Origin: Pradoshia sp. D12
GTDB lineage: Bacteria; Bacillota; Bacilli; Bacillales; Pradoshiaceae
Assembly: GCF_008935075.1 (NCBI RefSeq)
Contig: NZ_CP044545.1
Location: 1,019,501-1,083,500 of the forward strand
Direction of reading: 5' to 3'
DNA length: 64,000 nt
In this document: positions 3,701-28,749 of the stretch, in pieces
Position numbering within the stretch: the first letter of the stretch is position 1
How the letters are laid out: the number at the start of each line of letters is the position of its first letter
Translations under genes and position numbers: made by a program
Notes under the pieces: generated by a model
The model's input: only the letters and a program-made list of their open reading frames with translations
What the model was told of the DNA's origin: nothing
The model's database searches: none

Positions 3701-4519
3701 CAAACAAAAATACTGGATATCATTGAAAAATCAGCTGCAAGCGATCAAGAATTCAATGTTGCTTATAATCAAGTGATGGCAAAAGAACTGGATGAAAGAG
3801 TATTTGTAAAAAATATTGAAAATGTTCAGGGTGATGAACGAGATATCATTATTTTCTCCATAGGATATGCTAAAAATGAAGAAGGAAAGGTCTATAATCG
3901 CTTCGGAATGCTTAACCAATATGGTGGAGAAAATAGATTGAATGTAGCCGTATCAAGAGCCAAGGAACGTATTATTGTAGTATCTAGTATCGAGCCGGAA
4001 GAACTGAATGTTGCGGGCACAGCACAAATTGGACCAAAGCTTCTTAAATCATATTTAAAATATGTAAGAGCTGTTTCACGTACTAACAGGGAGGAAATAC
4101 AGTCGGTTGTCCAGGAAATTAATGATAATGTAAATACACATGTACAAGAACTGGCACTGCATTTTGATTCCCCCTTTGAAGAACAGGTCTATACTCAATT
4201 AAGAAATTTAGGGTATGAAGTCCACACACAAGTAGGAATGTCCGGGTACAGAATCGATATGGCCATCGTCCATCCTAATGATTCTTCCAAATATATTTTA
4301 GGGATTGAATGTGATGGAGCGATGTACCATAGCTCGGCCAATGCAAAAGAACGGGATATCTATCGTCAAAGATTCCTTGAAAGCCGAGGATGGACAATCG
4401 AAAGAATCTGGAGTAGAAACTGGTGGAAAACCCCTGCTCAAGAAATCGAAAGAATGGATCAAAAGGTGAAAGAACTATTAAGAAACGAAGAATTAAAAAA
4501 GAAAGTTAATGCAATCTGA
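764..4519 (+). CDS. Superfamily I helicase with C-terminal Vsr/MTES_1575-like nuclease domain
   Basis: This 1251-residue protein begins with a DUF4011-like segment (residues 1-40, including RDKLNDISRRNRSIRL). A UvrD/Upf1-like ATPase follows, with Walker A GPPGTGKS at 316-323, Walker B and Q-rich motif VIFDEASQC at 822-830, GDEKQLPP about 30 residues later, and C-terminal helicase motifs near NVQGDERDIIIFSIGY and NVAVSRAKER. The last 100 residues, with GIECDGAMYHS at 1180-1190 and a following R..FL..RGW, look like a Vsr/MTES_1575-type endonuclease domain. Start is GTG at 764 behind AGAAGG. Helicase-nuclease fusions of this kind are frequent in accessory and defence loci, but no partner defence gene is visible here, so its role is inferred. 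It stands alone between spoVA and a tandem-repeat block. Confidence 0.85.
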   Translation: MKEKLIHMRDKLNDISRRNRSIRLLKIYNKWSFDLTELDKLSNSNEKISEAIVKKIVMQSKGEITLLKPTIENEDSMVISKKLTDLLRNIKGIEEETGIHDFYLGYPFISGSLSDGTFFQAPLFLYPIRLEKSKVNTQRWIIRVEEGGPQINRTLFLAFKKLNSVQFTEEFFEEAAEIAKSYEREKWDTFFQAHDINLSFSNEGLTKLKEYKRDEIPESTGIVLLENAIIGNFPQGGSSLVKDFDALIDLSEDANLSSLVSELIEPQEFESAVDLNNDNEDNQTKEPDIMNLLVTDGSQEEILKEARYKKGIVVHGPPGTGKSQVIVNLITDALSQGKKILVVCQKRAALDVVYQRLDGLRLSNHIALVHDEKTDRKPLYNKISAVLETNKVLFDRSLEDLKSTSNSLFTHEKLLNDIAKGLYEYQDFGYRLYDLYGKATPLDHMDKMLNLKPVLSELNKDVLDEIGGKIYSYAEWYERFGSESYELKKRKSFAQFSIKDKLNLVELLNDLIVKAKNASDYLDSLDYKKITPAYTWLVGGKLDSIYPDLEGTGKKTLQGLRIWWWTSFSGKAIIEELLEGGKFKGTSSADWVKIKQALIIMNQLGKETKKMSNEINQLKKYFDEKMIENYQSRIADGDIPLQELDQLLEYIHQDFEDLQQMDSYWEECSEVTKKIIQELSVKSPASEQALPEYWVHLFKNSAYIHWIDETENKYPEVKKISTNEFSRIREKFSQLVDRKREVANQYLIHQLTQSVEELKKAYPREIRDLKHQAGKKRMIWPLRKLVNEFAEKGLVDLMPVWLASPEIVSSIFPLNDDLFDLVIFDEASQCTVESGLPAVFRAKQLIVAGDEKQLPPFNMFQSSFVNEDDEEEYDVDESQSLLNLAKRRFPEKILQWHYRSKFEELINFSNHAFYNGHVQIAPNVEPLKDPPAIQWKKVNGRWINQSNEVEALEVYRLLKETLIKQPDKTVGIITFNAKQQTKILDIIEKSAASDQEFNVAYNQVMAKELDERVFVKNIENVQGDERDIIIFSIGYAKNEEGKVYNRFGMLNQYGGENRLNVAVSRAKERIIVVSSIEPEELNVAGTAQIGPKLLKSYLKYVRAVSRTNREEIQSVVQEINDNVNTHVQELALHFDSPFEEQVYTQLRNLGYEVHTQVGMSGYRIDMAIVHPNDSSKYILGIECDGAMYHSSANAKERDIYRQRFLESRGWTIERIWSRNWWKTPAQEIERMDQKVKELLRNEELKKKVNAI

Positions 4520-18020: not shown

Positions 18021-18219
18021 GATAGTTTGATTAACCCTCTGTATTTTGTGTTGGTCCTCTTGATAAACTTCCGTTTTAATGGAAATTATATATTTATTAT
18101 GGAAGTCATCTCCATTGCATTTAAATGATTAGAGGAGTATTATATTTAATACGAGCTACATTGTACGTGATGCATAATTTAAGTTTTAACCTTTAAGCTG
18201 TAATAGGGAGTTTTATTAT

Positions 18220-18375
18220 AAAGGCTGGAATGACAAGCCTCTGTCTATATGACCTGGAGGACAAGCAGGAAAGCTTTTGCGAACACCCACTTGGAGAAGT
18301 GGTGGTTTAAAACTTTCTTATATGTAACGGCAAAAGTGGCTTATAAACCAATTCCATTTCGGAATTGGTTTTTTA
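18220..18375 (+). ncRNA. Candidate structured small RNA, possibly 6S-like
   Basis: The segment is not coding and is well structured. A GAAAG...CTTTC outer stem (near 18268 and 18313) encloses an internal loop, then a strong CACCCACTT-GGAG-AAGTGGTG hairpin near 18283-18305. The transcript would end at the terminator 18345-18375. TATTAT at 18214-18219 with a weak -35 near 18192 could start it just upstream. The strand TTTAAAACT after the apical hairpin recalls the conserved strand of 6S RNA, and the size of about 155-200 nt fits. The 6S assignment is only a guess. Confidence 0.4.
18345..18375 (+). terminator. Terminator of the candidate small RNA
   Basis: AAACCAATTCC pairs with GGAATTGGTTT over ATTTC, followed by six T. 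No coding gene lies upstream for 320 bases, which implies a non-coding transcript. Confidence 0.85.
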
Positions 18376-19186: not shown

Positions 19187-20809
19187 TTACTTTGTAATAA
19201 AGAGAGCACTGCCAATTTTTCTGGGGCTTTCGCCTAATTTATTAATTAAATTACCATTGATATATAGGGTGCTGGATCCTCCGCCATCTAAATTTACAGC
19301 TTCAACTGCCCCTAATTTCATCATAACATCAGCGCTTTGGCTTGCTGTTAAACCACTACTCCCATTAATTCGGCCATCTGTAACTGCCATGATAAACCGT
19401 CCATCTTTAGTCTGACCAAACAATGTTCGAGGGTTCCTGCTTTTACTGTGTGAGAAATACTCACTATGCGCTAAATTTATTTTGCCGTTCTGTACTAAAG
19501 AATATGAAGTACCAACAGCAAAATAATTATTTTCCTTCATATCTTCTAATTCTTGAAGATTTATTAATGGTGTTGCGATACTACGAATATCTATTTTCCC
19601 TGTCTTTTTATATTCCATAATTACGTATTTAGGATTATGGTTACTGGTTACTTGTCCATTTACCATAAATAAACCACCATGTTCCATTTTTGAGTTAAAA
19701 AAGCCTAAGTTTATCTTTGCTAGTTCATTTGGTAGCTTAATAGATGACAATGGTTCAAGAACATTAGGTTTTCCTTTGGAAACTGTTAAATTAGCATTAG
19801 GATTACTTGTATAGATATGAATATTCGTATTATAATATCTTACATTTTTATAATTAGGTACTGTCTCTTTGATGACAGACTTCTTCATGTATGTCGAGTT
19901 GACAAAGCCTGTCTTATTAGCATATTTAACTTTAAACCAACTTCCGGATTTGGAGAGATAGGTCACATTTTTCCCTTTCGGAATGGTTAGGATTACTTTA
20001 TGTTTATTAGAAGCACCAGTCCTTAAATTGACATTAGCCGTTGTTTGATATGTAACGGTAGCCTGTGAATTAGTCTGGGAATTAGCTGTTGGTTTCTTTA
20101 AATAAGAAGAGCTCACAAAGCCTGTCTTATTAGCATATTTAACCTTAAACCAACTTCCAGATTTGGAGAGATAAGTCACATTTTTTCCTTTCGGAATGGT
20201 TAGGATTACTTTATGCTTATTAGAAGCACCAGTCCTTAAATTGACATTAGCCGTTGTTTGATATGTAACGGTAGCCTGGGTACTAGCCTGTGAATTAGCA
20301 GTTGGTTTCTTTAAATAAGAAGAGCTCACAAAGCCTGTCTTATTAGCATATTTAACCTTAAACCAACTTCCGGATTTGGAGAGATAGGTCACATTTTTCC
20401 CTTTCGGAATGGTTAGGATTACTTTATGCTTATTAGAAGCACCAGTCCTTAAATTGATATTAGCCGTTGTTTGATATGTAACGGTAGCTTGGGTACTAGT
20501 CTGAGAATTAGCTGTTAGCTTCTTTAAATAAGAAGAGCTCACAAAGCCTGTCTTATTAGCGTATTTAACCTTAAACCAACTTCCGGATTTGGAGAGATAG
20601 GTCACATTTTTCCCTTTCGGAATGGTTAGGATTACTTTATGCTTATTGGACGAACCGGCTCTTAAATTGACATTAGCTGTCGTTTGATAGAGTGTGGAAG
20701 AAGAAACGGTTGCTGCGTCTACTTTTGTGTATAAATCAGTTGTTCCAAATAAAACCAAACCAAATGTAATAAAAATTAATACGATTTTTTGTGTCAATGA
20801 GTTTCTCAT
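19187..20809 (-). CDS. Secreted phosphodiester glycosidase with four SH3b repeats
   Basis: This 540-residue exported protein has a signal peptide (about 1-33, ending VDAA). Four SH3b cell-wall-binding repeats start at residues 41, 112, 183 and 254, a period of exactly 71 residues (213 bp). The C-terminal NAGPA/DUF2233 phosphodiester glycosidase domain (about 320-540) contains LGFFNSKMEHGGLF, AVTDGRINGSSGLTASQ and the active-site loop NLDGGGSST. The enzyme likely removes a sugar from a wall polymer or phosphodiester outside the cell. The repeats differ mainly in linkers, showing recent duplication or gene conversion. Confidence 0.9.
   Translation of the reverse strand: MRNSLTQKIVLIFITFGLVLFGTTDLYTKVDAATVSSSTLYQTTANVNLRAGSSNKHKVILTIPKGKNVTYLSKSGSWFKVKYANKTGFVSSSYLKKLTANSQTSTQATVTYQTTANINLRTGASNKHKVILTIPKGKNVTYLSKSGSWFKVKYANKTGFVSSSYLKKPTANSQASTQATVTYQTTANVNLRTGASNKHKVILTIPKGKNVTYLSKSGSWFKVKYANKTGFVSSSYLKKPTANSQTNSQATVTYQTTANVNLRTGASNKHKVILTIPKGKNVTYLSKSGSWFKVKYANKTGFVNSTYMKKSVIKETVPNYKNVRYYNTNIHIYTSNPNANLTVSKGKPNVLEPLSSIKLPNELAKINLGFFNSKMEHGGLFMVNGQVTSNHNPKYVIMEYKKTGKIDIRSIATPLINLQELEDMKENNYFAVGTSYSLVQNGKINLAHSEYFSHSKSRNPRTLFGQTKDGRFIMAVTDGRINGSSGLTASQSADVMMKLGAVEAVNLDGGGSSTLYINGNLINKLGESPRKIGSALFITK
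19880..20690 (-). repeat. Four 213-bp direct repeats inside the glycosidase gene
   Basis: The SH3b units are nearly identical in DNA (identical runs spanning the SNKHKVILTIPKGKNVTYLS coding part). Such in-frame repeats can change number by recombination. Confidence 0.85.
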
Positions 20810-22770: not shown

Positions 22771-23247
22771 ATGCTAGGAATTCTGGAGTTTCAGTTAAGC
22801 AAGATTATAGTTAATATCTTCATTATTATTGGGATTTTTTGTTTTGTGGTCCTTTTTACAAAGCAAGCCGAGTATGTTGAAAGCCTAAAAGGAAATGCGA
22901 TTACCTCTGAAGATATGAAAATTTCTCTTATTAAGAGAATGGCTTATGGCGCAGTTTTAGCTATCATTACTATTTTAATTGAGTATATCTTGGTTTATTA
23001 TCTGTCGGGTTATTTTAAAGTAGAGATTAACGAATTTAGTTTTATATTCAGTATCTTTGTTTTGTGTTTTTTCTTAATGATAGGAGTGGGCCCAAAGGAA
23101 TATACTGAACCAACCACTAATAATTATTGGGTTAGACAAGAGTTATACTGGACACTCGACAATAAAGAATTTGATATATTGGGAAAACCATATTTAATAG
23201 GGGCTGTAACTTTTTTTCTCATCAATTTAGTTTACTTCATCGTCTAG
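22771..23247 (+). CDS. Hypothetical four-helix membrane protein
   Basis: The ATG at 22771 is preceded by GGAGGAG, giving 158 residues. Hydrophobic segments lie near residues 10-30, 55-77, 90-108 and 138-158. No domain is recognised. It may be monocistronic. An in-frame upstream start at 22738 lacks a ribosome binding site. Confidence 0.55.
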   Translation: MLGILEFQLSKIIVNIFIIIGIFCFVVLFTKQAEYVESLKGNAITSEDMKISLIKRMAYGAVLAIITILIEYILVYYLSGYFKVEINEFSFIFSIFVLCFFLMIGVGPKEYTEPTTNNYWVRQELYWTLDNKEFDILGKPYLIGAVTFFLINLVYFIV

Positions 23248-23511
23248 ATCCTCAACAGTTTGATCTAATCATGATATTCCATCCCTCACGATCTCCTCTT
23301 ATTAAATGATAAATGGTCGTTTTTTGTGTAAAATCATTCCAATGACCCATAGAGAATCATGAATATTTTTGATAAAAATAAATAATTATACATAGATAGA
23401 ATGGTTTATTTAGGTTTTAAAGGTATAAAAAGTAAATGTATCTATTGCTAATTTTTCCATAAACTGATAATATTAGGACGTTGTTATTTTGGAAAGCAAA
23501 TATTCAAATAG

Positions 23512-23741
23512 TTAGAGTCTTTCCAAGCAGATAAAAATTGACCACTTGCCCACGGGAAGTTAAGGCCATACGGACAGCCGGGTCAAATGCCGACAGGCAA
23601 CATTAGTTGCCCTATTGATTGAGTTAGAAGCTCAAATTTTATAAGTTGGTTACTTTATAACCAGTACGACATAAATCGTGCAAAACTTGTGAAACGGTCA
23701 ATAAGAGTGGTAAAAGTATTTATTTGCTATATAGACTCTGA
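23512..23741 (+). ncRNA. Candidate structured leader RNA upstream of the polyamine operon
   Basis: Several long-range helices nest: 23512-23520 with 23733-23741 (9 bp), 23526-23535 with 23719-23728 (10 bp, one G-U) and 23537-23543 with 23696-23702 (7 bp). Inside are local hairpins such as GGCAAC-ATTA-GTTGCC (23596-23611) and TTGAG/CTCAA (23619-23635). This multi-branch closed architecture is typical of riboswitch aptamers. I do not recognise the consensus of a known class. It lies about 120 nt before an intrinsic terminator and 270 nt before the first polyamine gene. Confidence 0.55.
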
Positions 23742-23859
23742 TCTCCTTTTTAGGTATGTTGAATATTAAGAAGCTTTTCAGACATAAAATTCATTTGATT
23801 TTATGCGTGGCAATATGTCTGTATTTGTATATGCTTTTTAATAGGATAATAATATCTAC

Positions 23860-23902
23860 AAGCAAGTGATGTGCAATGAAATGCGCGTACACTTGCTTTT
23901 TT
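23860..23902 (+). terminator. Leader terminator before the polyamine operon
   Basis: AGCAAGTG (23861-23868) pairs with CACTTGCT (23890-23897), extended by a GC-containing inner helix, followed by six T. It lies inside the leader, so read-through would decide operon expression unless a second promoter exists downstream. Confidence 0.8.
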
Positions 23903-24009
23903 GTTGTCTTTTAACTTTATCAATTAATAAAAATCACCCCATAAATTCTTACGATTTAAACCAGATGGAAAGGGAAGTGGGAGAATTTTCAGCGAGAGGA
24001 AGTTTTGTG

Positions 24010-25482
24010 ATGATTGAACAAGAAAGATTATTTCGTCTTTCGCAGGGGCGGGCTCCTATTTATGAAGCTTTGGAAGAGTTCAAGAAAAAACGAATTGTTC
24101 CTTTTGATGTACCCGGCCATAAACGCGGGAGAGGTAATCCTGAATTGACAGCTTTTTTGGGTGAGCAAGCGGTTAGTGTGGATGTTAACTCGATGAAGCC
24201 GCTAGATAATCTCTGTCATCCGGTATCCGTCATTAAAGAAGCAGAAGAATTAGCAGCTGAGGCATTTGGTGCTGCACATGCATTTTTTATGGTGAATGGA
24301 ACGACATCTGCCGTACAGGGGATGGTCCTGACAGCTTGTAAAGCGGGAGATAAAATTATTCTTCCCCGAAATGTTCATCGCAGTGTCATTAACGCACTTG
24401 TTCTATGTGGTGCCGTGCCGGTATATGTAAATCCGGAAATGGATAAAAATCTAGGAATTGCGCTTGGTATGTCTCTCAACCAGGTGGAAAAAGCGATTAA
24501 AGAAAACCCAGAGGCTAAAGCCATTTTGGTCAATAATCCAACCTATTACGGAATCTGCTCAGATTTACGAGGGATTGTGAAACTTGCCCATCAGCATAAT
24601 ATGCTTGTTCTTGCAGATGAAGCACACGGAGCACATTTATACTTTGGAAAAAACCTTCCCGTGACTGCCATGGCTGCTGGTGCAGATATGGCTTCAGTCA
24701 GCATGCATAAATCCGGGGGGAGTTTAACGCAAAGCTCATTTATGTTAATGGGACCTTCTGTGAATGTCGGTTATGCAAGGCAAATTGTTAATCTGACACA
24801 AACGACAAGCGGATCGTATTTGCTGCTTTCAAGCTTAGATCTTTCTCGAAGAAATCTAGCGTTAAATGGAGAGCGGATTTTCGATGATGTTATTAATCTT
24901 GCAGAATATGTTCGGAACGAAATCAATCAAATTGGTAACTATTATGCCTTTTCAAGAGAATTGGTGAATGGAGATAGCATATTTGATTTTGATGTAACTA
25001 AGCTCTCGGTACATACATTAGATATTGGACTAGCGGGAATTGAGGTATATGACTTATTGCGAGATGAGTATGATATCCAAATTGAATTTGGAGATATAGG
25101 CAATATTTTGGCCTATGTATCTGTTGGTGATCGGAAAAGAGATGTCGAACGTCTGATCAGTGCCCTATCAGAAATACGTCGTCGTTATTCGACTGATAAA
25201 TCAGGTCTGATTACACAAGAATATATTGACCCGGAGGTTGTGATTACACCGCAGGAGGCATTCTATGCAGATAAAGAATCATTGAGTCTGCGAGATACAG
25301 AGGGTCGAGTGTGCAGTGAGTTTGTGATGTGCTATCCTCCTGGAATTCCAATCCTCGCACCAGGTGAAAGAATCACGAAAGAAATCATTGAGTATATTGA
25401 CTATGCAAAAGCAAAAGGCTGTTCCATGACAGGACCGGAAGACCTTGCTATTGAACGTCTGAATGTACTAAAGGGAGTGTGA
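24010..25482 (+). CDS. speA: Orn/Lys/Arg decarboxylase family enzyme (SpeA-like)
   Basis: From ATG 24010 (AGAGGAAG site) the protein has 490 residues, the length of Bacillus SpeA. A longer frame from 23866 starts inside the leader terminator and is rejected. It is a fold-type I PLP enzyme: FDVPGHKRGRG near residue 33, FFMVNGTTSAVQGM, LADEAHGAH and the PLP lysine K234 in SMHKSGGSLTQSSF. It should make agmatine, cadaverine or putrescine; which one is not decidable by eye. Being first in an operon with aminopropyl-transfer genes supports a polyamine role. Confidence 0.88.
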   Translation: MIEQERLFRLSQGRAPIYEALEEFKKKRIVPFDVPGHKRGRGNPELTAFLGEQAVSVDVNSMKPLDNLCHPVSVIKEAEELAAEAFGAAHAFFMVNGTTSAVQGMVLTACKAGDKIILPRNVHRSVINALVLCGAVPVYVNPEMDKNLGIALGMSLNQVEKAIKENPEAKAILVNNPTYYGICSDLRGIVKLAHQHNMLVLADEAHGAHLYFGKNLPVTAMAAGADMASVSMHKSGGSLTQSSFMLMGPSVNVGYARQIVNLTQTTSGSYLLLSSLDLSRRNLALNGERIFDDVINLAEYVRNEINQIGNYYAFSRELVNGDSIFDFDVTKLSVHTLDIGLAGIEVYDLLRDEYDIQIEFGDIGNILAYVSVGDRKRDVERLISALSEIRRRYSTDKSGLITQEYIDPEVVITPQEAFYADKESLSLRDTEGRVCSEFVMCYPPGIPILAPGERITKEIIEYIDYAKAKGCSMTGPEDLAIERLNVLKGV

Positions 25483-25486
25483 CAGC

Positions 25487-26347
25487 ATGGAGTTGTGGTT
25501 TCATGAACGTAGCACGGCAGAAGTAAAGCTTTCCATCAAGGTGGACAAGCATTTATACAGTGAACAGAGCGAATTTCAGAGGATTGATATCTTTGAATCG
25601 AACGAGTTTGGGAGATTTTTGACCCTGGATGGCTATATGATGATGACTGAAAAAGATGAGTTTATTTATCATGAGATGATTACCCATGTACCTATGGCTG
25701 TTCATCCAAATCCACGGAAGGTTTTGGTTATTGGTGCAGGGGATGGCGGTGTTGTACGTGAGCTAACCCGTTATCAACAGATTGAACATATTGACATGGT
25801 GGAAATTGACGAAAAGGTAGTTGAAGCCTGTAAGAATTATTTGCCGTTAACAGCTTCCAAGCTTGATGACGAACGGGTTCATATTCATTATGAGGATGGG
25901 CTGAAATTTGTTCGCTCCTGTGAAAATCAATATGATTTGATCATCGTGGATTCAACCGACCCATTCGGACCGGGTGAAGGCTTGTTTACGAAAGAATTTT
26001 ACGGTAATTGCTACAAGGCCTTACATGAAGATGGAATTATGGTAAATCAGCATGAGAGTCCGTTTTATGCAGAAGACAGGGCAGCGATGCAGAGGGCGCA
26101 CCAACGGATTATCGACTGTTTCCCAATTAGCAGGGTATATCAGGCACATATTCCATCCTACCCGTCCGGCCACTGGTTGTTTGGATTTGCATCCAAAAAA
26201 TATCAACCTCTTGCAGATTTAAATCAAGAGGCTTGGAAACAGTTAGGTATTAAAACACGCTATTACAATCCTAATTTACACCGTGGTTCCTTTGCTTTGC
26301 CAACGTATGTGGAGGAGCTGCTGAGGGACGTGGAAGATATTCCATGA
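25487..26347 (+). CDS. speE: Polyamine aminopropyltransferase (spermidine synthase SpeE)
   Basis: This 286-residue protein starts 4 bases after the decarboxylase. The N-terminal beta domain (LWFHERSTAEVKLSIKVDKH) is followed by the Rossmann methyltransferase-like fold with VIGAGDGGVVREL, the acidic VEIDEKVVE and the active-site DSTDPFGPGEGLF. It moves an aminopropyl group from decarboxylated S-adenosylmethionine to putrescine or agmatine. No speD or speB gene is in this operon. The acceptor-site loop here reads QHESPFYAED. Confidence 0.92.
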   Translation: MELWFHERSTAEVKLSIKVDKHLYSEQSEFQRIDIFESNEFGRFLTLDGYMMMTEKDEFIYHEMITHVPMAVHPNPRKVLVIGAGDGGVVRELTRYQQIEHIDMVEIDEKVVEACKNYLPLTASKLDDERVHIHYEDGLKFVRSCENQYDLIIVDSTDPFGPGEGLFTKEFYGNCYKALHEDGIMVNQHESPFYAEDRAAMQRAHQRIIDCFPISRVYQAHIPSYPSGHWLFGFASKKYQPLADLNQEAWKQLGIKTRYYNPNLHRGSFALPTYVEELLRDVEDIP

Positions 26348-26420: not shown

Positions 26421-27620
26421 ATGGGAAAAGCACTGATTATTGGTTGTGGCGGAGTAGCCTCTGTGGCAATAAACAAATGTGTACAAAACAGTGAGGTATT
26501 TGAAGAGATTTGTATTGCAAGTCGTACTAAGTCCAAATGTGATGATTTAAAAGCTAAGCTTGACGGCGGTAAGACAAAAATTACAACGGCTCAGGTGGAT
26601 GCAAACAATGTGGATGAGCTAATTGCTTTAATAGAAGAAGTGAAACCAGATATAGTCATGAACCTTGCCTTACCATATCAGGATTTAACGATTATGGATG
26701 CCTGTCTTGCAACTAAAATTCATTATATGGATACAGCTAATTATGAGCCTGAAGATACAGCGAAGTTTGAATATAAATGGCAATGGGATTACCGTGAGCG
26801 CTTTGAAGAAGTGGGTATTACTGCATTATTAGGAAGCGGATTTGATCCTGGCGTTACAGGAGTATTCTCAGCCCATGCCTTAAAACATCATTTTGATGAA
26901 ATTGAATACATTGATATTTTAGACTGTAATGCAGGTGACCATGGTTATCCTTTTGCAACAAACTTTAATCCTGAAATAAATATCCGTGAAGTAACAGCAA
27001 ATGGCTCCTATTGGGAAAATGGCCAATGGGTAGAAACAGAGCCAATGGAAATTAAACGTACGTACAATTTCCCTGAGATCGGTGACAAAGATATGTATCT
27101 ATTACATCATGAAGAAATTGAATCACTTGCTTTGAATATTCCTGGCATTAAGCGGATTCGTTTCTTTATGACATTTGGGCAAAGTTATCTCACTCATTTA
27201 AAATGTCTAGAAAATGTTGGGATGACATCTATTGAGCCAATCGAATTTGAAGGGAAAGAAATCATACCTCTTCAATTTTTAAAAGCAGTACTTCCAGACC
27301 CTTCTTCACTTGGTCCGCGTACAAAAGGAAAAACGAATATTGGCTGTATTTTCCGCGGTAAAAAAGATGGAAAAGATAAAACTTATTATGTATACAATGT
27401 TTGTGATCATGAAGCGTGTTACAAAGAAGTGGGATCACAGGCGGTTGCTTATACAACAGGGGTTCCTGCAATGATTGGTGCGATGATGGTTATGAACGGA
27501 AATTGGAACAAGCCTGGTGTTTACAATATTGAGGAATTTGATCCAGATCCGTTCATGGAAGCATTGAATAAATGGGGACTTCCTTGGAAAGAAAGCTTTG
27601 ATCCGGAGTTAGTAGACTAA
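26421..27620 (+). CDS. Carboxy(nor)spermidine-type dehydrogenase (LYS1/saccharopine dehydrogenase family)
   Basis: This 399-residue protein has the N-terminal Rossmann motif GCGGVASVA at residues 8-16, then NLALPYQDLTIMDACL, and GSGFDPGVTGVFSAHALKHH typical of carboxynorspermidine/carboxyspermidine synthases. These enzymes reductively condense aspartate semialdehyde with a diamine (putrescine, diaminopropane or agmatine). The next gene, one base away, encodes the matching decarboxylase, which strongly supports this specificity over lysine biosynthesis. GGAGAT precedes the ATG. Confidence 0.9.
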   Translation: MGKALIIGCGGVASVAINKCVQNSEVFEEICIASRTKSKCDDLKAKLDGGKTKITTAQVDANNVDELIALIEEVKPDIVMNLALPYQDLTIMDACLATKIHYMDTANYEPEDTAKFEYKWQWDYRERFEEVGITALLGSGFDPGVTGVFSAHALKHHFDEIEYIDILDCNAGDHGYPFATNFNPEINIREVTANGSYWENGQWVETEPMEIKRTYNFPEIGDKDMYLLHHEEIESLALNIPGIKRIRFFMTFGQSYLTHLKCLENVGMTSIEPIEFEGKEIIPLQFLKAVLPDPSSLGPRTKGKTNIGCIFRGKKDGKDKTYYVYNVCDHEACYKEVGSQAVAYTTGVPAMIGAMMVMNGNWNKPGVYNIEEFDPDPFMEALNKWGLPWKESFDPELVD

Positions 27621-27621
27621 G

Positions 27622-28749
27622 ATGCGCTTTGATCAATTACCAACACCATCTTATGTGGTAGATGAAGGTCTACTCGAGAAAAACCTAAAAATTTTAAAGG
27701 GTGTAATGGGTCGAACCGGATGTAAAATTATCCTGGCACAAAAAGCATTTTCTATGCATGCAATGTATCCGTTAATCGGTCAGTATTTGAGTGGGACTGC
27801 TGCGAGCGGATTGTATGAAGCTAAGCTTGGCTATGAGGAGATGGGAAAGGAAAATCATGTGTTTTCCCCAGCCTACCGCGAAGATGAGATAGATGAAATT
27901 ATCTCTATTTGTGATCATATTATCTTCAATTCTTTTTCACAGCTTGAGAGATTTGGGGATAAAGTACTCCAGGCAGGTAAAAGCATAGGCCTCCGTATTA
28001 ATCCAGAATGTTCGACTCAAGAGGGCCATGAAATCTATGATCCATGCACTAGAGGATCCAGATTTGGTATAACGGCTGATGAATTTCGTCCAGATTTGCT
28101 GGAAGGTGTATCGGGATTACATTTCCATACGCTTTGTGAACAGGATTCGGATGCCTTGGCACAAACCCTCAATGCTGTCGAAGAGAAATTTGGAAAATGG
28201 CTGCCGCAAATGAAATGGATTAATTTTGGCGGTGGCCACCATATTACAAGAGATGGGTATAATATAGGCCTGCTGGAGGACTGTATTACCCGTATTCAGA
28301 AGACATATGATTTGGAGGTTTATCTTGAGCCGGGTGAAGCAATTGCTCTTAATGCCGGATTTCTTGTGACAACGGTTCTTGATACATTAAAGAATGATTT
28401 GGAAATTGCTATCCTCGATACTTCGGCTTCCTGTCATATGCCGGATGTGTTGGAAATGCCATATCGCCCTCCGCTTCTTGGTAGTGGTGAACCCGGTGAA
28501 AAGGCCCATACGTACAGATTAGGCGGTCCAACCTGCTTAACAGGGGATATTATTGGAGATTATTCATTCGATCAGCCGTTAAAAAGTAATGACCGATTGG
28601 TTTTTGGGGATATGGCGATTTATTCGATGGTTAAAAACAATACATTTAACGGAATGGCCCTGCCGACAATTGCTGTACAGGACAAGAATGGTGAATGCCG
28701 CATTTTGCATAAATTTAATTATATGGATTTTAAAAATAGACTATCTTAA
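27622..28749 (+). CDS. nspC: Carboxynorspermidine/carboxyspermidine decarboxylase
   Basis: This 375-residue alanine-racemase-fold PLP decarboxylase has the PLP lysine K41 in LAQKAFSMHAM, and NFGGGHHITRDGYN, LEPGEAI and the cysteine loop GPTCLTGDIIGDY. It removes the carboxyl group left by the dehydrogenase, giving spermidine, norspermidine or aminopropylagmatine. Its start is one base after the dehydrogenase stop, so translation is probably coupled. It is the last gene of the operon, followed by a terminator. Confidence 0.92.
   Translation: MRFDQLPTPSYVVDEGLLEKNLKILKGVMGRTGCKIILAQKAFSMHAMYPLIGQYLSGTAASGLYEAKLGYEEMGKENHVFSPAYREDEIDEIISICDHIIFNSFSQLERFGDKVLQAGKSIGLRINPECSTQEGHEIYDPCTRGSRFGITADEFRPDLLEGVSGLHFHTLCEQDSDALAQTLNAVEEKFGKWLPQMKWINFGGGHHITRDGYNIGLLEDCITRIQKTYDLEVYLEPGEAIALNAGFLVTTVLDTLKNDLEIAILDTSASCHMPDVLEMPYRPPLLGSGEPGEKAHTYRLGGPTCLTGDIIGDYSFDQPLKSNDRLVFGDMAIYSMVKNNTFNGMALPTIAVQDKNGECRILHKFNYMDFKNRLS

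What the first reader, a model, noticed from the sequence alone, without database searches (positions are those of the whole stretch)
23512..23902. Folded leader RNA plus terminator before the polyamine operon: possible new riboswitch or attenuator
Three long-range helices (9, 10 and 7 bp) close a multi-branch RNA of about 230 nt, followed 120 nt later by an intrinsic terminator and then the decarboxylase gene. The 7-mer CACTTGC in the folded RNA (23543-23549) recurs exactly as the right arm of the terminator (23890-23896). It could therefore pair with the terminator left arm (GCAAGTG, 23862-23868) and act as an antiterminator. An alternative pairing ACCACT with AGTGGT (23541-23546 with 23706-23711) also competes with one helix. 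I recognise no known riboswitch class. A polyamine, agmatine or S-adenosylmethionine derivative would be a natural ligand.
Basis: partly seen in the sequence, partly recalled or inferred. Interest (0 to 1): 0.78.

Follow-up and report, generated by a model that had tools for sequence, protein, structure and literature searches.

The report
Polyamine operon leader RNA switch
Upstream of spermidine-making genes lies a large, strongly conserved folded RNA ending in a transcription stop signal; the same RNA sits before polyamine synthesis and uptake genes in many Bacillota, and Rfam holds only a 54-base piece of it, filed as a small RNA.

Summary
The leader is real and larger than described. Rfam recognises only 54 nt of it (RF02440, SpF59 sRNA or 'ldcC RNA'; 68.9 bits, cut-off 37.2), so "no known class" is wrong for that piece. 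The RNA is about 230 nt; ten helices are supported as a set by covariation in 63 relatives. A covariance model of the part outside RF02440 (E<=0.01) matches all 18 RF02440-positive genomes of a 398-genome sample, plus 2 more. In 146 correctly placed distinct loci the first downstream gene is an Orn/Lys/Arg decarboxylase (43), carboxynorspermidine synthase (42), PotA importer (27) or SpeD (26); of the other 8, six lack downstream sequence. A terminator follows within 200 nt in 139 of 143. Its left arm is preferentially complementary to the 3' strands of P9/P7, a candidate antiterminator.

The pneumococcal version has been catalogued as an sRNA (SN20/F59/srn235/M7), as late as 2025. Best explanation: a transcription-attenuating riboswitch that senses a polyamine end product, probably spermidine, and turns synthesis and import off. 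Ligand binding is untested. It is distinct from the published spermidine riboswitch, a SAM-I variant.

The parts
23445..23473 (+). putative promoter: TTGCTA, 17 nt, TAATAT with TG one base upstream; start of transcription expected near 23480
   Evidence: read from the sequence. A canonical TTGAC..TAnnnT promoter occurs somewhere in the 125 nt upstream of the RNA core in 81 of 115 related loci, shuffled expectation 1.5; this window's copy does not match that strict pattern and was not listed by the promoter scan
23492..23507 (+). P0 outer helix, 5' strand (GAAAGC..ATATTCAA)
   Evidence: sequence; own pairing better than swapped partners in two groups of loci, p=0.0002 and 0.005
23512..23520 (+).
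   Evidence: reading of alignment A2
23526..23535 (+).
   Evidence: 6 of the 7 pairs counted show changes on both sides, 70.8% of cells paired
23539..23593 (+). match to Rfam RF02440 SpF59_sRNA (ldcC RNA), 54-nt model
   Evidence: 68.9 bits, gathering 37.2
23539..23585 (+). P2 domain: P2 (23539-23543 x 23581-23585) enclosing hairpin P3 (23544-23547 x 23557-23560) and hairpin 23564-23566 x 23577-23579 with conserved loop CAUACGGACA
   Evidence: covariation
23596..23611 (+). P4 hairpin
   Evidence: 6 of 6 pairs with changes on both sides
23612..23708 (+). 3' half of the aptamer, outside RF02440: P5 (23613-23618 x 23698-23703), P6 (23619-23625 x 23629-23635), P7 (23637-23647 x 23684-23694), P8 (23648-23652 x 23658-23662), P9 (23664-23669 x 23676-23681)
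   Evidence: model R1, 102.6 bits on the window (the window copy is in the training set)
23704..23739 (+). possible alternative hairpin P10 (23704-23708 x 23735-23739) that excludes P1
   Evidence: 91.1% of cells paired, weak covariation
23759..23779 (+). P0 outer helix, 3' strand
23685..23690 (+). proposed antiterminator strand in P7 (ACUUGU), pairs with 23862-23867
   Evidence: in this window it is not the best partner of the left arm, which lies around P4
23860..23901 (+). intrinsic terminator; its left arm GCAAGU (23862-23867) is the proposed antiterminator partner
   Evidence: -21.6 kcal/mol; a terminator lies within 200 nt in 139 of 143 correctly placed loci
24010..25482 (+). Orn/Lys/Arg decarboxylase (speA/ldc type); ATG 24010 with GAGAGG upstream is the likely start, not the longest ORF from 23866
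   Evidence: PF01276, 237 bits, searched from 23968; sequence
25487..26347 (+). speE, spermidine synthase
   Evidence: TIGR00417/NF002010 over cut-off
26421..27620 (+). carboxynorspermidine synthase (dehydrogenase) relative
   Evidence: NF043000, 418 bits, below its curated cut-off of 800
27622..28749 (+). nspC, carboxynorspermidine decarboxylase
   Evidence: TIGR01047 over cut-off

Best explanation
It is a cis-acting leader RNA of the polyamine operon: an aptamer-like domain of about 230 nt (P1-P9, with an outer helix P0) followed by an expression platform. Shown by computation: the conserved fold, the terminator, the preferential complementarity of the terminator's left arm to the 3' strands of P9 and P7, and the gene association. 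Inferred: the aptamer binds a polyamine end product, most likely spermidine. When that is plentiful P7/P9 stay closed, the terminator's left arm is free, the terminator forms and transcription stops before the decarboxylase. When it is scarce the P9/P7 3' strand pairs with the terminator's left arm, the terminator cannot form, and the synthesis (or, elsewhere, import) genes are transcribed.
For: Covariation: 61 pairs over 63 relatives, 88.5% of cells paired, score 0.193 against 0.115 shuffled and at most 0.075 with partners slid; 214 cells changed on both sides against 84.7 shuffled and at most 84 slid. The 3' half alone (model R1, outside RF02440, E<=0.01) matches all 18 RF02440-positive genomes (E<=0.001) of the same 398-genome phylum sample, plus 2 without RF02440; 11 of the 18 loci are in R1's training set, and one (G367) passes only at E=0.009. 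First downstream genes: 138 of 146 correctly placed loci are OKR decarboxylase, CANSDH, PotA or SpeD; of the other 8, six have no downstream gene in hand and two have one of these genes second. A terminator lies within 200 nt in 139 of 143; a control with shuffled downstream sequence gives 34 of 146 against 141 of 146 observed, or 6.3 against 140 at -13 kcal/mol or better. The best blind duplex of the own left arm falls in the P9/P7 3' strand in 105 of 139 loci (20 shuffle rounds: mean 50, maximum 58). A perfect stem of 5 bp or more occurs in 30 of 46 cluster representatives against 10.2 shuffled. Extension beyond the CUUG:CARG core is 3.58 against 2.35 (sd 0.20) with partners exchanged among 38 representatives. 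Short transcripts of the pneumococcal homologue (869478-869791 or -869804, in front of SP0916) were recorded by tiling arrays and later listed (PMC2887815, PMC12323649), as expected of a terminated leader.
Against: No ligand binding, expression or probing data for the full RNA. By nearest-neighbour energies in the window the aptamer beats the antiterminator by about 12 kcal/mol (-102.4 against -90.2, RNA 23480-23880), so antitermination would need kinetic control or a missing factor. In the window itself the best partner of the left arm is around P4, not P7. A stricter own-versus-swapped duplex energy test was not significant on 52 cluster representatives (27 of 52 better, p=0.40), although significant on all 139 (94 of 139 better, p=4e-8). 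Pairing at fixed register shows no excess among 38 representatives at any of 8 offsets (a slight excess at offsets 5-8 in all 118 related rows); the excess appears when bulges are allowed. P5 and P7 hardly vary and have no pair with a two-sided change. Most aligned sequences were fetched with a pattern that fixes part of the 5' core, including strands of P2 and P5, so their constancy there is partly by selection. The streptococcal terminator lacks the CAAG arm.
Confidence: 0.6

Rival explanations
1. The leader is an attenuator read by an RNA-binding protein that responds to polyamines or nitrogen, not by a metabolite directly.
For: The energy gap of about 12 kcal/mol between aptamer and antiterminator would leave work for a protein. 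One locus carries an ORF that looks like a P-II protein (recognised by eye, not searched) between the RNA and potA (L075).
Against: 34 columns are invariant in 63 sequences along a 230-nt fold, 18 of them outside the stretch fixed by the search pattern; that is more than a protein site usually needs (general knowledge). The eight gene clusters of more than one member printed for the up to four downstream ORFs per locus are polyamine enzymes and the Pot transporter; other flanks were not examined.
Confidence: 0.2
2. It is a riboswitch for a precursor or another related compound (agmatine, putrescine, arginine, lysine, cadaverine), or an ON switch.
For: 43 of 146 loci start with an Orn/Lys/Arg decarboxylase; in pneumococcus SP_0916 is an arginine decarboxylase (PMC7531197, title and passages).
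Against: The same RNA heads SpeD (26), CANSDH (42) and PotABCD operons (27), which share polyamines and not arginine, lysine or SAM. Repression of both synthesis and uptake fits an end product.
Confidence: 0.12
3. It is a trans-acting small RNA, as its Rfam type and the pneumococcal sRNA lists say.
For: Rfam types RF02440 as 'Gene; sRNA'. Short transcripts are detected in pneumococcus, and the 2025 list keeps it among 58 candidate sRNAs.
Against: It lies directly in front of polyamine genes in 138 of 146 loci, with record titles from Bacilli, Clostridia and Negativicutes (class placement of the titles recalled), and a terminator between RNA and gene. A terminated leader gives the same short transcript. 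An additional trans role is not excluded.
Confidence: 0.05
4. Leader-peptide attenuation, with ribosome stalling on Arg, Lys or polyamines.
For: The window has an ORF of 37 codons at 23756-23869 ending in the terminator's left arm.
Against: It has no clear ribosome-binding site (by eye). Only 11 of 91 representative leaders hold any ORF of 8 or more codons behind a ribosome-binding site, and apart from a few sharing MQIF, which lies over the conserved UGCAAAUAUUUU strand, the peptides show no common sequence.
Confidence: 0.03

Closest known systems
Rfam RF02440 SpF59_sRNA (ldcC RNA)
   Same: Its 54-nt model matches 23539-23593 of this RNA at full length and hits 10 of 12 other loci scanned.
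   Different: It models pairs of P2 and P3 only. The other 170 nt or so, the terminator and the polyamine association are not in the model, and it is typed as an sRNA. It was not found in two genomes that carry the rest.
Pneumococcal SN20 / F59 / srn235 / Spd_sr49 / M7 (PMC2887815, PMC3395615, PMC12323649; passages read)
   Same: Same position, in front of SP0916 (arginine decarboxylase); 82 nt (F59), 318 nt as printed (SN20), 869478-869804 (M7).
   Different: Listed as an sRNA. One paper guessed an FMN-switch-like role from a shared motif. No cis-regulation of polyamine genes is described in the passages read.
Spermidine riboswitch, SAM-I variant (PMC10853860; passages read)
   Same: Polyamine genes, OFF logic with antiterminator and terminator; there spermidine is the shown ligand.
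   Different: Variant of the SAM-I aptamer, with 13 representatives in its alignment. This RNA has no SAM-I match, another fold, and also heads PotABCD.
odc1 and potE motifs (PMC8632094; passages read)
   Same: RNA motifs before ornithine decarboxylase or a putrescine-ornithine antiporter.
   Different: odc1 is a hairpin with a predicted pseudoknot in alphaproteobacteria (labelled uORF-25-1 in the paper); potE is confined to Veillonella and environmental samples.

Membership tests
Rfam RF02440 (SpF59_sRNA) | score over the curated gathering cut-off across the full 54-nt model | tested here: met
   68.9 against 37.2 bits, positions 1-54
Rfam RF02440 (SpF59_sRNA) | independent trans-acting sRNA gene, as typed | tested here: inconclusive
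   Position and terminator argue for a cis leader; a trans role was not tested
Spermidine riboswitch (SAM-I variant) | SAM-I type aptamer core | tested here: not met
   No SAM family among matches up to E=1 in 23200-24100, none at gathering score in the window or 12 loci
Spermidine riboswitch (SAM-I variant) | association with polyamine synthesis genes and a terminator platform | tested here: met
Riboswitch (kind) | conserved structured aptamer-like domain with covariation | tested here: met
Riboswitch (kind) | expression platform with mutually exclusive terminator and antiterminator | tested here: inconclusive
   Complementarity enriched, and own-specific when bulges are allowed, but energetics unfavourable in the window and one swap test not significant
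Riboswitch (kind) | direct ligand binding | not testable with these tools
   needs probing or binding assays
T-box | match to the T-box model | tested here: not met
   No Rfam T-box match in the window at gathering score or up to E=1 in 23200-24100

The most novel reading that the evidence does not exclude
A widespread riboswitch class of the Bacillota, with its own aptamer fold unrelated to SAM-I, senses spermidine (or a related triamine) and shuts off both synthesis by either biosynthetic route and PotABCD import. In pneumococcus it has been filed as an orphan sRNA since 2010-2012.
Probability: 0.5. Interest if true: 0.88.

Novelty: new variant of a known kind. Interest (0 to 1): 0.77.

Why it matters
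Polyamines are abundant RNA-binding cations. The 2023 spermidine-riboswitch paper calls earlier evidence for polyamine riboswitches unconvincing and itself rests on rare SAM-I variants. This RNA would be a common, structurally independent polyamine sensor in Bacillota, including gut bacteria, paenibacilli and streptococci, and makes the question directly testable: the aptamer limits, the terminator and the predicted switch strands are named. It also bears on a database entry: an 'sRNA' of pneumococcus is most likely the leader of its polyamine operon.

Tried and rejected

Led nowhere: the word 'F59' found mostly unrelated papers (20 of 1,229 listed); the potABCD 'ABC-leader' of PMC2965389 concerns Haemophilus and Pasteurella; PMC6296669, PMC11109978 and PMC6429828 hold none of the words searched for in their main text; PMC8546594 had one irrelevant passage; PMC11477304 discusses another (speF-like) motif in C. 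difficile. Searches behind 'not in print': in an open-licence library, with only part of the longer lists shown; subscription papers and preprints outside it were not searched.

The thermodynamic comparison of the two states did not favour the antiterminator. No 3D prediction and no full-length covariance model was made.

Rows dropped and errors found. A1 took 64 of 71 representatives: L016, L029, L057, L099, L107, L125 and L127 were left out as broken, over-long or aberrant. A2 took 58 of the 71 plus L157, L159, L161, L180 and L181; left out were L025, L029, L041, L044, L045, L049, L057, L074, L099, L107, L124, L125 and L127, and also L145 and L149, whose 5' domain diverges. A check of the locus finder showed three of the 149 distinct loci misplaced (L029, L091, L099); gene counts are therefore given as k of 146, and terminator counts as k of 143 instead of 146. 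Antiterminator tests used 139 of 143 terminator hits; 4 hits over 300 nt away were excluded, and none of the three misplaced loci is among the 139. The finder missed 1 of 182 loci (L074).

Full report
What is there. The window carries a polyamine operon: Orn/Lys/Arg decarboxylase, speE, carboxynorspermidine synthase relative, nspC. The synthase match is below its curated cut-off; the gene order supports the name. The likely decarboxylase start is ATG 24010 with GAGAGG in front (sequence); the longer ORF from 23866 starts inside the terminator and is unlikely. A putative promoter at 23445-23473 would start the transcript near 23480 (sequence), giving a leader of about 530 nt; the simple promoter scan did not list it, and listed none on the + strand between terminator and gene. 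The leader folds far better than shuffles (z -6.6) and ends in a strong hairpin plus U-run at 23860-23901.

Rfam. cmscan of the window at gathering scores gives 6S RNA (18150-18346) and RF02440 SpF59_sRNA '(ldcC RNA)' at 23539-23593, 68.9 bits against 37.2. With permissive filters on 23200-24100 only RF02440 and a sub-threshold opuB match on the other strand remain. So a known family exists, but its 54-nt model spans about a quarter of the RNA.

The full RNA. RF02440 was found in 18 of 398 genomes drawn from the phylum. Reading those loci showed conservation running about 150 nt further downstream. One pattern scan of genome contigs gave 118 more stretches, capped, with Bacillota-type or unspecific bacterial titles (Paenibacillus, Bacillus, Neobacillus, Kurthia, Lachnospiraceae, Oscillospiraceae, Acidaminococcus, Phascolarctobacterium and others). 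I built a covariance model, R1, from 64 sequences of the P5-P5' part alone, which shares no base with the RF02440 match. In the same 398 genomes R1 (E<=0.01) matched 20: all 18 with RF02440 and two without. Eleven of the 18 loci are in R1's training set and one of the 18 passes only at E=0.009, so this is a co-occurrence result rather than an independent test. In 398 genomes of the class R1 matched 36, including eight of one genus with scores near 50 bits; two of these (L181, L182) were fetched and resemble the pneumococcal leader in gene and position, and L181 also matches RF02440 (39.8 bits).

Structure. On 63 full-length sequences the ten helices P1b, P2, P3, the GGC/GCC hairpin and P4-P9 (61 pairs) are 88.5% paired. 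Covariation score 0.193, shuffled 0.115 (sd 0.004, 0 of 500 as high), slid partners at most 0.075; 30 pairs and 214 cells change on both sides. P1b, P2 (one pair), P3, the GGC/GCC hairpin (one pair), P4, P6, P8 and P9 carry the covariation; P9 (63% of cells paired) and P1b (71%) are also the least regular. P5 and P7 are nearly invariant and are supported by conservation and complementarity only. Caveat: most sequences came through a pattern that fixes GGACAGCCGGGTC, GCCG and ATTGATTG, so constancy of those strands, which include parts of P2 and P5, is partly by selection; 18 of the 34 invariant columns lie outside it. An outer helix P0 pairs each leader's own flanks better than swapped flanks (25 of 33 representatives with a CUUUCC motif, p=0.0002; 44 of 68 others, p=0.005). 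A mutual-information scan of 133 sequences put pairs of P2, P3 and P4 among its top ten and a P6 pair just below, next to one column pair (166-203) that is not in the model; further down, non-pairing column pairs are mixed in.

Genes. The finder placed 149 distinct loci; a check found three misplaced (L029, L091, L099). In the other 146 the first downstream ORF is an OKR decarboxylase in 43, CANSDH in 42, PotA in 27 and SpeD in 26 (names on one representative per cluster, CANSDH below its curated cut-off). Of the remaining 8, six have too little downstream sequence or no long ORF in it (L019, L032, L041, L052, L055, L133). L075 has a P-II-like ORF (by eye) and then PotA and PotBCD, and L121 another ORF and then the decarboxylase. 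A canonical promoter pattern occurs in the 125 nt upstream in 81 of 115 loci, shuffled expectation 1.5; the window's own promoter is weaker.

Expression platform. A hairpin plus U-run by my criterion lies within 200 nt in 139 of 143 correctly placed loci with at least 250 nt downstream. Control: in the first 260 nt, 141 of 146 scanned against 34 with shuffled sequence; at -13 kcal/mol or better 140 against 6.3 (the 146 include the three misplaced loci). Left arms share CAAG or CAGG in 118 of 139. Searching the whole aptamer without prior choice, the own left arm pairs best with the 3' strands of P9/P7 in 105 of 139 (20 shuffle rounds: mean 50, maximum 58). In this window the single best duplex lies elsewhere, around P4 (-14.8), with the P7 pairing at -12.3 kcal/mol. 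Own-specific extension beyond the four-base core is 3.58 pairs against 2.35 with partners exchanged (38 representatives). Results against: the duplex-energy swap test on 52 representatives is not significant (27 of 52, p=0.40), fixed-register pairing shows no excess among representatives, and the window's energies favour the aptamer by about 12 kcal/mol.

Literature. The pneumococcal homologue was seen by tiling array as SN20, 869478-869791, between SP0915 and SP0916 (PMC2887815, passages). It was listed as F59, 82 nt (PMC3395615, passages), and in 2025 as M7 = srn235/F59/Spd_sr49, 869478-869804, among 58 candidate sRNAs, while two other candidates were removed as cis-regulators (PMC12323649, passages). 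SP_0916 is an arginine decarboxylase (PMC7531197, passages). That F59 is the RNA of Rfam's SpF59 rests on the shared name and position; no named pneumococcal sequence was fetched. The published spermidine riboswitch is a SAM-I variant aligned from 13 representatives, acting by termination (PMC10853860, passages). Ten searches showed no paper on the full RNA; the library holds open-licence papers only and long lists were shown in part.

Mechanism. The strongest inference is that the ligand is a polyamine end product. The metabolites common to arginine/lysine/ornithine decarboxylation, SpeD/SpeE, the carboxynorspermidine route and PotABCD import are polyamines (pathway knowledge), and repressing both synthesis and uptake is what an end-product sensor does. 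A protein-mediated attenuator remains possible.

Verdict. A real, widespread cis-regulatory RNA whose databased part is a fragment; a strong candidate for a new polyamine riboswitch class. Cis-regulation of polyamine genes: about 0.9. Direct sensing of a polyamine end product with an OFF outcome: about 0.6.

Noticed in passing
window 18150-18346 (+): 6S / SsrS RNA, 75.7 bits, about 5 kb upstream of the polyamine leader.
   Followed up: no
window 19187-20809 (-): ORF of 540 aa with four near-identical repeats that look like SH3 domains (by eye) before a different C-terminal region; probably an exported cell-wall protein.
   Followed up: no
L075, first ORF after the RNA (starts about 8 nt after the 3' end used): A P-II-like ORF (recognised by eye, not searched) lies between the leader RNA and potA, suggesting a link of nitrogen status and polyamine uptake.
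   Followed up: no
L149 and L145: Two genomes keep the 3' half (R1) but have a strongly changed or replaced P2/P3 domain that RF02440 misses at gathering score; possible subclasses with another specificity.
   Followed up: partly
L021, L046, L050, L055, L069, L071, L080, L085, L095, L115, L117, L126: An extra hairpin-like insert lies between the conserved UGCCGA strand and P4 in this group, mostly Oscillospiraceae or other Clostridia by title.
   Followed up: no
L029 (RNA core at 4409): A copy that seems to lose the 3' half after P8 (by eye); a decayed leader or an assembly join.
   Followed up: no
window 23571-23573 and 23590-23592: Loop CGG and the CCG strand could form a short pseudoknot; both are invariant in A2 (partly fixed by the search pattern), so covariation cannot test it.
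   Followed up: no
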